This document shows positions 43,655 through 46,553 of a DNA stretch of 64,000 nt, piece after piece. This stretch comes from Brevibacterium sp. JSBI002 (GTDB lineage Bacteria > Actinomycetota > Actinomycetes > Actinomycetales > Brevibacteriaceae). The stretch covers positions 62,001 through 126,000 of the forward strand of contig NZ_CP110341.1 in the NCBI RefSeq assembly GCF_026013965.1, written 5' to 3'. Below the pieces are notes generated by a model. That model was not told where the DNA came from, did no database searches, and worked only from the letters and a program-made list of their open reading frames with translations. A program made the position numbers and the translations under genes. Position 1 is the stretch's first letter. Each line of letters opens with the position of its first letter.

Positions 43655-45604
43655 GTGTCTACTTTCTTCGACGGTCCCGAATTCCACGGAATGGCAGCGG
43701 GCGGCAGTATCAGCCATAACCCCGGCATGGGCGATCGGATGATGCGGGAGCTGGCGCCGTTCCTCAAGGCCGAAGGCGTCGACATCGACGATCCGAATGC
43801 GGACTTCACCGAAGCCGAATTCCACGCAGCCATGGAGAAGGCGCAGGAGGAGTACAACCGCCGCCTGTTCACCCCGGTCGGTGCCCACCGCGGACTGGCT
43901 CTGGGGAAGCTGCGGTCATTCTCCGTGGCCTTTGCCGAAGGCGACATCAAAACCGCGGAGGCTGTTGTGGCCTCCCTGCCCTCTGACCCCCAGGACTTCA
44001 ACCCGAGCGTCGCGCAGGTGACCGGGGCGGCGATGGACCTCCTCGACGAATGGTTCACCGACGACGTGCACGGACCGAAGCTCGGCGGAGTGATGGCACC
44101 GAAGTGGTCGGCGAAGAAGTCCCGTGCCGTGGCCCGCGACATCCTGGCCCTGGCACATAAGGGCCGCGTCGTCGACAGCCTCGATCGCCTCATCGCCAGC
44201 AACAGCGGACGTCCAGTCCTCGAGGGCTCCATGCTCGCCGTAGCCGCCGCCGTCGCGCGGTTGGCCAAACGAAACAAGGTCTCGGAGCAGCAATTCGTCG
44301 ACGAGCTCATGCCGCTCGACGGCTATCCGGAACCGGTTGCGGGCACCTACGGTTCCACCGACCGAGTGTTCCAGGACGACCAGGACGTCCAGGACGGCCC
44401 TGCCGCAGAACAGGACCTGCCTGAGTGGCTCGGCGGATCGAGCGCCGAGGCGAGCGCACAGGCGAATCCCCACGCCGACCCGCAGAGCGTCGACGAACGA
44501 ATGGACGCGGTCGAGAAGACCGTCTACGAGATGCCGCTCTATCAGCGCTTCCGCGACTGGCTGGCCGAGACCTACGACGACGTCGACGAGGACTCAGAGG
44601 TCTTCGACATCGCCCACCTCCTGTTCTGCATCGCCGTGTCCTCCCGCGCAGATATCGACGAACCGGAGGGAATCGACGACCTCCTCGACGTCCTTGAAAG
44701 CTTCGCAGTCGACGGACAGGAGGAGGCCGAGAAGTCCGATGGCGAATCGCCGTCGACGGTGATCTTCCTCGACAGCCTCGAAGCTCTCGACAACTATCTC
44801 CGCTTCCGCATGGACACCGACGAGAACCCCGAACGCTGGAACGCCGCCCGCGCCCGAGCCGAGGCCGCGAGCATGCGCACCGACCCGCTGCCCTCGGCCC
44901 TGATGGCCGCAGTCGAAGCCAATGCCCTGAGTGAGGAGCAGCTCGCGCAGCCCATGCCGCACAATCGCCTCGTCGCCGGTGTAGCCGGCATTCTCGACTG
45001 GATCGGCGACTCCCGCCCGCTGACAGGTACGGGACGGGTGAAGCGGGCCGATATCGCCGAGGCGGCCGAAAAGTTCGGCATCAAAGCCGTCGGAGTTGCG
45101 TCGAACGCCCGGTACGAAGACGGCGTGAACTATGCGCGCAGCGCCGATGAGGTGCCCGTCCTCGAAGCGATGTGGGCCGTGATGCAGAGTGCTGAGATCA
45201 CCGAGATCACCGGCACCAAGGTCCGCCCGGGAAGCGCCGCCGACGAGTGGAAGAAGGGTGAGGTGAGCGCGGATACCGCACTGCCGGTCATCGGCGCCTT
45301 CATCTACGAGCGGCTGCTCGACGTGATCAACCTCGTTCCCGGAGAGGACTACGGCGCCCCTGCGATCACGATCGCCCAACGCCTCATCGAGATCCTCACT
45401 CCTGACTCGGCACCCGAACGCCCCGACCTCGACCTCGGCGAGGTGCGCGCCGAGCGACTCTCCACGCTCTTGGCAGACGAGCTGCAGGAGCTCACCGAGC
45501 TCGGGCTCCTCACAGCCGACGGAGACACGCTGTCTGTCGAGCCGGTGTACAAGCGCATCGTCGCCGGTGCCGCGCTCATGCTGCTGTCGGGGCCGCGCAG
45601 CTGA
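43655..45604 (+). CDS. Large cytosolic protein of unknown function
   Basis: 649 residues, acidic, no signal peptide or membrane helix. I recognise no domain. Visible features: an N-terminal FHGMAAGGSISHNPGMGDRM stretch, a helical repeat-like body rich in Ala/Glu/Asp (many LL/AV pairs), an acidic low-complexity linker at about 230-275, and a C-terminal helical region (APAITIAQRLIEILTPDS). GTG at 43655 follows GGCAGGAGC. The even codon use and length argue strongly for a real gene. It is not in an operon: a truncated TetR precedes it and an iron box and small non-coding stretch follow. Confidence 0.75.
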   Translation: MSTFFDGPEFHGMAAGGSISHNPGMGDRMMRELAPFLKAEGVDIDDPNADFTEAEFHAAMEKAQEEYNRRLFTPVGAHRGLALGKLRSFSVAFAEGDIKTAEAVVASLPSDPQDFNPSVAQVTGAAMDLLDEWFTDDVHGPKLGGVMAPKWSAKKSRAVARDILALAHKGRVVDSLDRLIASNSGRPVLEGSMLAVAAAVARLAKRNKVSEQQFVDELMPLDGYPEPVAGTYGSTDRVFQDDQDVQDGPAAEQDLPEWLGGSSAEASAQANPHADPQSVDERMDAVEKTVYEMPLYQRFRDWLAETYDDVDEDSEVFDIAHLLFCIAVSSRADIDEPEGIDDLLDVLESFAVDGQEEAEKSDGESPSTVIFLDSLEALDNYLRFRMDTDENPERWNAARARAEAASMRTDPLPSALMAAVEANALSEEQLAQPMPHNRLVAGVAGILDWIGDSRPLTGTGRVKRADIAEAAEKFGIKAVGVASNARYEDGVNYARSADEVPVLEAMWAVMQSAEITEITGTKVRPGSAADEWKKGEVSADTALPVIGAFIYERLLDVINLVPGEDYGAPAITIAQRLIEILTPDSAPERPDLDLGEVRAERLSTLLADELQELTELGLLTADGDTLSVEPVYKRIVAGAALMLLSGPRS

Positions 45605-45654: not shown

Positions 45655-45689
45655 TTGTGTACTCTCAATCCTCGGTTAGGCTAACCTAT
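45655..45689 (+). promoter_or_regulatory. DtxR/IdeR-type iron box with overlapping promoter
   Basis: CTCGGTTAGGCTAACCTAT (45671-45689) matches the 19-base DtxR/IdeR consensus at 16 positions; the core GGTTAG-G-CTAACC is a perfect palindrome. TTGTGT (45655-45660) and TAGGCT (45677-45682) with a 16-base spacer are plausible -35/-10 elements, so the box would repress this promoter when iron is plentiful. No protein gene follows in this direction before the convergent Lrp gene. Confidence 0.8.
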
Positions 45690-45818
45690 GAGAAATACGC
45701 AACGCTGATCTTTCCTAAGGTGGTTGACACGCTAGCTTGAAGTGTTGGATCCGGCGTGGGCGGTTCTCTCTGTTTCACGTCAAGAAGCCCTCGGCACAAA
45801 TTCCGGTGCCGGGGGCTT
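45690..45818 (+). ncRNA. Candidate iron-responsive small RNA
   Basis: Between the iron box and a strong hairpin lie about 130 bases without a credible gene: the only frame is a 6-codon ATG frame (45688-45708) with no ribosome site. Predicted stems include GACAC/GTGTT near 45735-45755 and CGTG/CACG near 45755-45780, then the terminator. Layout (promoter, iron box, short non-coding segment, terminator) matches what is known for iron-regulated small RNAs such as mycobacterial MrsI. A decayed gene is the main alternative. Confidence 0.45.
45785..45818. terminator. Hairpin terminator between small RNA and lrp gene
   Basis: AAGCCCTCGGCAC (45785-45797) and GTGCCGGGGGCTT (45806-45818) form a 13-bp stem with one T-G wobble and an 8-base loop. 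It can serve both the rightward candidate small RNA and the leftward Lrp gene. Confidence 0.7.
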
Positions 45819-45865
45819 CGCTCTGTCAGAACTGAGTGCCCTATCGGGCGGAAGCGCCGCGTTCC

Positions 45866-46321
45866 TCAGCCGGCGCCCGGCCTGTGGCCCTCCGCCTCAT
45901 CGAGGATGAGGAGTGAGCGGGAGGACACGACGCCCGGGACTTCGTGGATCCGGCGGAGGATCACCTGCGACAGCGCAGTGTTATCCGGGGCATTGACCGT
46001 CACCAGGGCGTCGATGTCCCCGCTGACGGCTTGGACCTTCTCGACGAAGGGAAGGGCTGCCAGGTCATCGCGGACCTGCGGCCAGGGGCGCTCGCCGATC
46101 TTGACGACGACGACCGCGGTCACGGTCATGCCGAGAGCCTCGCGGTCCACCTCGGCGGTGAATTTTCTGATCGCACCCGATTCGATGAGGGTGGTGAAGC
46201 GCTTATGTGCGGCGGAGCGGGAGATGTGGACACGTTCGGCCAGCTGGCGCACGCTCAGGCGCGAGTCCTCGACGAGGGCGGCGATGATGCTGCGGTCGAT
46301 GTCGTCGAGGTCGAATGCCAC
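45866..46321 (-). CDS. Lrp/AsnC family transcriptional regulator
   Basis: 151 residues. N-terminal helix-turn-helix (FDLDDIDRSIIAALVEDSRLSV followed by RQLAERVHISRSAAHKRFTTL) and a C-terminal RAM/AsnC ligand domain (TVTAVVVVKIGERPW, VQAVSGDIDALVTVNA, LRRIHEVPGVVSSRS). These regulators sense amino acids and control their transport and metabolism. GTG at 46321 has AAGGAG six bases upstream; the frame continues upstream without homology. Divergent from etfB by 418 bases, so it may or may not control it. Several amino-acid catabolic genes lie within 20 kb. Confidence 0.88.
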   Translation of the reverse strand: MAFDLDDIDRSIIAALVEDSRLSVRQLAERVHISRSAAHKRFTTLIESGAIRKFTAEVDREALGMTVTAVVVVKIGERPWPQVRDDLAALPFVEKVQAVSGDIDALVTVNAPDNTALSQVILRRIHEVPGVVSSRSLLILDEAEGHRPGAG

Positions 46322-46553
46322 GGGGCGCTCCTTCACCGTTGATGTCTGCGTCTTGCCTGCGACCTCTGCGTTCAACCTGCCCTGATGCACTCGCGCGGAG
46401 AGGCGGCGATGGCACCGGGAGGACTGGTCGTTCTCCTTCCCATTCTAGGGCCCCGCCTCGGCGAGGGGATGGCCCTGCGTCGAGGTCCCGTCGTCGACGA
46501 CAGGGGGACCGCCTCGGCGAGGAGAGTCCGCATGGTTGCGGAGTCCGGCGCAC

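What the first reader, a model, noticed from the sequence alone, without database searches (positions are those of the whole stretch)
45655..45818. Orphan DtxR/IdeR iron box driving a gene-less ~130-base transcript
A 19-base site matching the DtxR/IdeR consensus at 16 positions overlaps a promoter and is followed only by a short non-coding segment and a strong 13-bp hairpin. No protein gene follows in that direction. This is the layout of an iron-repressed small RNA; iron-sparing small RNAs are known in mycobacteria (MrsI) but not, to my knowledge, in this group.
Basis: partly seen in the sequence, partly recalled or inferred. Interest (0 to 1): 0.72.

Follow-up and report, generated by a model that had tools for sequence, protein, structure and literature searches.

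The report
Iron-controlled RNA that outlived its operon
In Brevibacterium, a folded RNA under an iron-repressor site normally sits in front of siderophore-uptake genes, but in several species those genes are gone while the site, the RNA and its end hairpin were kept, which suggests that the RNA has a job of its own.

Summary
A DtxR/IdeR box (45671-45689, 16 of 19) overlaps a promoter and is followed by about 130 noncoding bases ending in a 14-bp hairpin; no gene follows on the + strand. Only three places in this genome match the box this well; the others precede siderophore-binding-type proteins and a heme oxygenase. In relatives the same RNA leads an operon for a siderophore-interacting protein (SIP) and a binding protein at the same site. 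It was found in 31 of 57 genomes of the genus: 19 with SIP, 2 with only the binding protein, 10, including the window, with no operon left. No hit lay outside the genus. Among eight SIP-less species the RNA body is 90% and the hairpin 95% identical, against 75-85% at four-fold sites of neighbours and 51% downstream. The hairpin corresponds to a stem that covers the SIP ribosome-binding site in SIP species and stays paired through compensatory changes. Operon loss with RNA retention appears at three places in the tree; seven related genomes lack both. Best reading: an operon leader that became, or always also was, a free-standing iron-repressed RNA. Transcription, 3' end and target are unproven. 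No Rfam family matches.

The parts
45655..45660 (+). -35-like hexamer TTGTGT, 16-nt spacer to TAGGCT
   Evidence: TTGNNN at 16-18 nt spacing in 31 of 31 loci
45671..45689 (+). DtxR/IdeR box, 16 of 19, covering the -10 hexamer TAGGCT (45677-45682)
   Evidence: TTAGGNT core directly upstream of the RNA in all 31 loci
45688..45819 (+). proposed noncoding RNA of about 130 nt (start inferred at 45688-45690, end inferred at the hairpin)
   Evidence: covariance models R1 and R2, folding; no transcript data
45690..45768 (+). P1 helix, 45690-45696 with 45762-45768, closing the 5' domain (one A-G mismatch in the window copy)
   Evidence: 86% of cells paired, both-side changes at 4 of 8 pairs, on 28 of the 31 loci
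45717..45738 (+). P2 hairpin with the conserved GTTGACAC motif in and beside the loop (two bases shorter in G045, G005, G047)
   Evidence: 93% of cells paired, one-sided changes only
45769..45783 (+). unpaired stretch with conserved GTTTCA and CGTCA elements; candidate pairing region
   Evidence: accessibility, alignment A7
45784..45819 (+). 14-bp end hairpin; corresponds to the stem that covers the SIP ribosome-binding site in relatives
43655..45604 (+). upstream neighbour, 649-aa protein without a Pfam match
   Evidence: same upstream neighbour in 14 of 31 loci, 6 of them SIP-bearing
45866..46390 (-). downstream neighbour, Lrp/AsnC regulator; in SIP-bearing relatives it follows the SIP operon

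Best explanation
A promoter whose -10 element lies under an IdeR box makes, under iron shortage, a folded RNA of about 130 nt. The RNA is the former 5' leader of an operon for a SIP and a siderophore-binding protein. In the window lineage the operon was deleted in place, leaving promoter, box, the P1/P2 domain and a hairpin corresponding to the stem that in SIP species covers the ribosome-binding site. The hairpin now ends or protects a free-standing noncoding RNA kept by purifying selection. Shown by comparison: box, synteny, absence of the operon, conservation, covariation, retention of the RNA without the operon at three places in the tree. Inferred: IdeR binding, transcription, the 3' end, and action in trans (most likely base pairing through the unpaired GUUUCA/CGUCA region or the GUUGACAC loop).
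For: Same RNA in 31 of 57 genus genomes (30 by model R2 at E up to 0.1, one match each; G007 by box, layout and SIP). In 11 of 11 SIP-bearing genomes fetched with longer flanks the order is box/RNA - SIP - binding protein - Lrp, then etfB in the 10 whose stretch reached it; in the window SIP and binding protein are gone. All 19 SIP orthologs carry the RNA. Eight SIP-less species: body 0.90 and hairpin 0.95 mean identity versus 0.75, 0.75 and 0.85 at four-fold sites of three neighbours and 0.51 downstream. P1 covaries: 28 double-change cells versus 14.2 in shuffles and at most 9 in slid controls. The hairpin pairs over 11-14 bp in 31 of 31 with double changes at 5 of 14 positions (a sixth if a bulged pair of G042 counts); one of them is private to the window genome. 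The other two best IdeR boxes lie before Peripla_BP_2 genes and a heme oxygenase; a DtxR/IdeR-type regulator is encoded.
Against: No expression data. Seven of 38 genomes in the RNA-bearing group have neither RNA nor the SIP ortholog, so the RNA is dispensable. In G035 and G043 the RNA and hairpin still precede the binding-protein gene, so there it may act only in cis. No U-tract after the hairpin. Target checks were negative: no second good site for the unpaired segment at a start codon and no pairing with the other IdeR-box genes or ideR beyond shuffles. The SIP-stem pairing is only moderately beyond protein plus codon constraint (71 of 1140 synonymous shuffles as strong, 0-12 of 60 per genome). 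The number of P1 pairs with double changes is not unusual (146 of 500 shuffles). The single-gene rpoB tree mixes SIP and SIP-less species, so recombination at the locus complicates the counting.
Confidence: 0.62

Rival explanations
1. Relic: the operon was deleted recently, or the empty allele was spread by recombination, and the leader is decaying without function.
For: The operon is lost in relatives; 7 of 38 group members lack both; closely related species differ in SIP presence; the closest pair, G000 and G029, shows no excess conservation.
Against: Over all 28 pairs of eight species, body and hairpin are more conserved than four-fold sites and far more than the downstream flank. A compensatory change in the hairpin is private to the window genome. 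RNA without any operon gene appears at three places in the tree.
Confidence: 0.14
2. Purely cis or DNA-level role: the box is an IdeR site for titration, and the hairpin terminates the convergent Lrp gene or the upstream gene.
For: The hairpin lies between convergent genes, 46 bases from the Lrp stop codon.
Against: It does not explain conservation and covariation of the 90-nt body, the -35 element or the fixed spacing of box and RNA.
Confidence: 0.13
3. A leaderless micro-peptide starting at the ATG overlapping the box (45688) is the product.
For: A 37-aa frame ends just before the SIP start in 8 of the 30 loci listed.
Against: The frame is 6 codons in the window; 6 of the 30 loci have CTG, TTG or ACG in place of ATG; lengths and frames vary.
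Confidence: 0.04
4. A ligand-sensing leader (riboswitch-like) that controls SIP translation in relatives; the orphan copy is a sensor domain working in trans. (Overlaps with the best explanation.)
For: Structured 5' domain, ribosome-binding site in a 13-14 bp stem, possible UUGAC/GUCAA loop pairing: GUCAA is exact in 17 of 19 SIP species and altered in G006, G035 and G043.
Against: The loop pairing hardly varies, so covariation cannot test it; no ligand is suggested; no Rfam family matches.
Confidence: 0.25

Closest known systems
MrsI of mycobacteria (recalled; no paper could be opened)
   Same: iron-repressed small RNA under an IdeR box in actinobacteria
   Different: no sequence comparison with MrsI was made; this RNA is the leader of a SIP operon in relatives; no targets known
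RyhB/PrrF-type Fur-repressed sRNAs (recalled)
   Same: works-like model: an RNA made when iron is short
   Different: different regulator and host group (recalled); base pairing not shown here
DtxR/IdeR-controlled siderophore-uptake and heme-oxygenase genes
   Same: same box design; in 19 relatives it precedes SIP and in 2 a binding protein
   Different: in the window and 9 other genomes no operon gene is left behind it
Riboswitch or 5'-UTR-derived trans-acting RNAs (for example Rli55, SreA; recalled)
   Same: a leader RNA used as a free RNA
   Different: no ligand or target known; freed by loss of the operon

Membership tests
DtxR/IdeR regulon | 19-bp box overlapping the promoter | tested here: met
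DtxR/IdeR regulon | an IdeR-type repressor in the genome | tested here: met
   three Fe_dep_repr_C proteins; one 247-aa frame with Fe_dep_repress, Fe_dep_repr_C and a DtxR SH3 match just under its cut-off; a second scanned one ends in FeoA; the third was not scanned
DtxR/IdeR regulon | repressor binding and iron response | not testable with these tools
   needs footprinting and RNA assays
MrsI-like iron-sparing sRNA | sequence or structure homology to MrsI | not tested
   no MrsI sequence was fetched; Rfam searches gave nothing, and whether Rfam holds MrsI was not checked
MrsI-like iron-sparing sRNA | no protein coding | tested here: met
   frames not conserved
MrsI-like iron-sparing sRNA | base pairing with mRNAs of iron-using proteins | tested here: inconclusive
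   limited checks negative; mRNAs of iron-using proteins were not surveyed
Intrinsic terminator | GC-rich hairpin | tested here: met
Intrinsic terminator | U-tract after the hairpin | tested here: not met
   not called; the sequence after 45819 is GCTCTGTC
Riboswitch | membership of a known riboswitch family | tested here: not met
Riboswitch | ligand-dependent switching | not testable with these tools
   needs probing

The most novel reading that the evidence does not exclude
A bifunctional iron-repressed RNA: in SIP-bearing Brevibacterium it is the folded leader of a siderophore-uptake operon and also acts in trans, which is why lineages at three places of the tree that lost the operon kept promoter, box, RNA and the stem of the former ribosome-binding site as a free-standing regulator.
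Probability: 0.42. Interest if true: 0.78.

Novelty: new variant of a known kind. Interest (0 to 1): 0.6.

Why it matters
It would be an iron-responsive RNA family found so far only in one genus, with visible stages of a leader becoming a free RNA: intact operon, SIP lost but binding protein kept, remnants of the first codons only, clean hairpin. That makes the birth of a regulatory RNA from an operon leader directly testable in related strains that differ at this locus, and would add an IdeR-controlled RNA in Brevibacterium, a genus of cheese and skin bacteria (recalled).

Tried and rejected
tRNA-like element: 24 bases (45721-45744) resemble a tRNA-Leu gene at 88%, but ARAGORN finds no tRNA here; treated as chance.

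Known RNA family: the Rfam gathering scan of the window found none; permissive scans of L001, L002 and five related loci gave, apart from the real tRNA in L002, only hits far below gathering scores.

Small peptide: frames vary. Antisense targets: a 15-base complement of the unpaired segment has two further 2-mismatch sites in the genome, neither at a start codon.

Rows dropped: the R1 hit in G037 reads like coding sequence; a second weak R1 hit in G053 (22 bits) was not followed; weak R2 hits in G020 and G050 have no box; G007 was left out of the pair counts because it aligns poorly, and L050 and L059 because their RNAs repeat L049 and L058 (A7 holds 28 of 31 loci). G033 has a 54%-identical SIP without the RNA. 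In one search the P2 columns were set one off; one search is the corrected count. Alignment A1 mixed strands and was discarded. In one search the promoter anchors were wrong for several loci; one search is the corrected table.

The odds of the best and the boldest reading were lowered by 0.03 each and those of two rivals raised by 0.01 each for that reason. The motif loci were completed from 80 to all 119 held.

Literature: seven paper searches and two paper look-ups failed, so nothing was read and no claim about what is in print is made beyond recall.

Full report
Observation. The box (45671-45689) matches the IdeR consensus at 16 of 19 positions and is the only such site in the window (0 in 100 shuffles). 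In the whole genome three places reach this level, the reversed-pattern control none: one between two divergent Peripla_BP_2 (siderophore-binding-type) genes, one before a heme oxygenase, and this one. The genome encodes three proteins with the Fe_dep_repr_C domain; one has the DtxR/IdeR layout. The -10 hexamer lies in the box, and TTGNNN stands 16-18 nt upstream in 31 of 31 loci. Downstream come about 130 noncoding bases and a 14-bp hairpin, then, 46 bases on, an Lrp/AsnC gene on the other strand.

Distribution. A blastn search of 57 genomes of the genus found strong matches (E 1e-40 or better) in seven others besides the window genome and clear weaker ones in five more; most of the remaining hits at E up to 1 are pieces of 16-30 bases. 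A covariance model from 12 loci hit 32 of 57 at E up to 1; one of these, G037, reads like coding sequence and was dropped. A second model (28 loci) hit 30 of 57 in the genus and 0 of 3 genomes of other genera of the family. Among 297 genomes drawn from the order it hit 10, all of this genus. These searches used strict filters; a laxer one over the 27 genomes without an R2 hit added only G007 (16 bits) and three hits without a box. G007 has the box, the same layout and SIP, so I count 31 of 57.

Names. In the 119 loci it returned, 17 score 80 bits or more with the model and all 17 are Brevibacterium; the next best, in Gastranaerophilales and Oscillospiraceae, score 20-21 bits.

What it is in relatives. 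In 19 of 57 genomes an ortholog (74-100% identity to the query) of a siderophore-interacting protein follows, and all 19 have the RNA directly in front. The protein read in full (G056) is a 642-aa fusion of SIP domains and an O-methyltransferase dimerisation domain. In 11 of 11 SIP-bearing genomes fetched with longer flanks SIP is followed by a Peripla_BP_2-type binding protein (in two pieces in G007) and then the Lrp gene, and etfB in the 10 whose stretch reached it; in the window the RNA abuts Lrp. Twelve genomes have the RNA without this SIP. Ten have no operon gene left: the window and seven others with one hairpin type, G006 and G049. In G035 and G043 SIP is gone but the binding-protein gene follows the hairpin. 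G006, G049, G035 and G043 keep recognisable remnants of the first SIP codons. The window genome has two other FAD_binding_9 (SIP-family) genes elsewhere, neither reaching E 1e-20 with the lost ortholog.

The hairpin. In the 19 SIP genomes the ribosome-binding-site region pairs over 13-14 bp with a site about 150 nt inside the SIP gene. The SIP-less types keep this stem with a shortened loop. All 31 pair over 11-14 bp, and 5 of 14 positions show changes on both sides. One double change is private to the window genome and one to G035/G043, where SIP no longer constrains the sequence. Control: 71 of 1140 synonymous shuffles of the SIP genes paired as strongly, so in SIP species part of the pairing follows from protein and codon usage. 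Whether the window-type 3' arm descends from the SIP codons or arose anew is not settled; they are alike, but the pairing itself forces likeness.

The body. On 28 of 31 loci P1 covaries: 28 double-change cells versus 14.2 in shuffles and 2-9 in slid controls; covariation score 0.228 versus 0.146 and at most 0.058. The number of pairs with double changes (4) is not unusual (146 of 500 shuffles), and the structure was derived from these sequences. P2 is 93% paired with one-sided changes only. Across the eight window-type species (8 of the 12 SIP-less ones; gaps counted as differences) mean identity is 0.90 for the body, 0.95 for the hairpin, 0.85 for 45668-45686 (most of the box), 0.68 upstream and 0.51 in the 60 bases downstream; four-fold sites are 0.75 (649-aa gene), 0.75 (Lrp) and 0.85 (etfB). 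The closest pair, G000 and G029, shows no contrast (0.91 body versus 0.92-0.93).

History. A single-gene rpoB tree of 57 genomes puts all RNA carriers in one group of 38: 19 with SIP, 12 RNA without SIP, 7 neither. RNA without any operon gene falls in three places: G006 (sister to G035/G043), G049, and the window type, whose eight members are interspersed with SIP species. That suggests exchange of this locus between species; a few placements (for example G004) look odd for a single gene.

Reading. The evidence favours a leader RNA that remains under selection after loss of its operon, hence a free-standing, IdeR-repressed noncoding RNA. Trans action is inferred; the target checks made were negative. 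Lacking both RNA and SIP is also common, so the RNA is not essential. No literature could be opened; names of comparable systems are recalled.

Noticed in passing
45721-45744: 24 bases resemble part of a tRNA-Leu gene (88%); the same query stretch gives one such hit in many genomes of the genus; no tRNA is predicted here.
   Followed up: partly
L071:1495-3420: SIP fused to an O-methyltransferase-dimerisation-type C-terminal part (642 aa).
   Followed up: no
L052 and similar loci: A 37-aa frame starting at the ATG in the IdeR box flank ends just before the SIP start in 8 of 30 listed loci; not conserved elsewhere.
   Followed up: partly
L210 (G018), L284 (G007): SIP genes match in two pieces in different frames, and the G007 binding protein in two pieces, so they may be broken or misassembled.
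   Followed up: no
L216:1547-2569: The binding-protein gene on the + side of the divergent IdeR box appears as two separate frames and may be interrupted.
   Followed up: no
43655-45604: 649-aa protein next to the RNA has no Pfam match.
   Followed up: no
G004, G012, G014: rpoB placement disagrees with the RNA and flanking genes, hinting at exchange of this locus or mixed assemblies.
   Followed up: no
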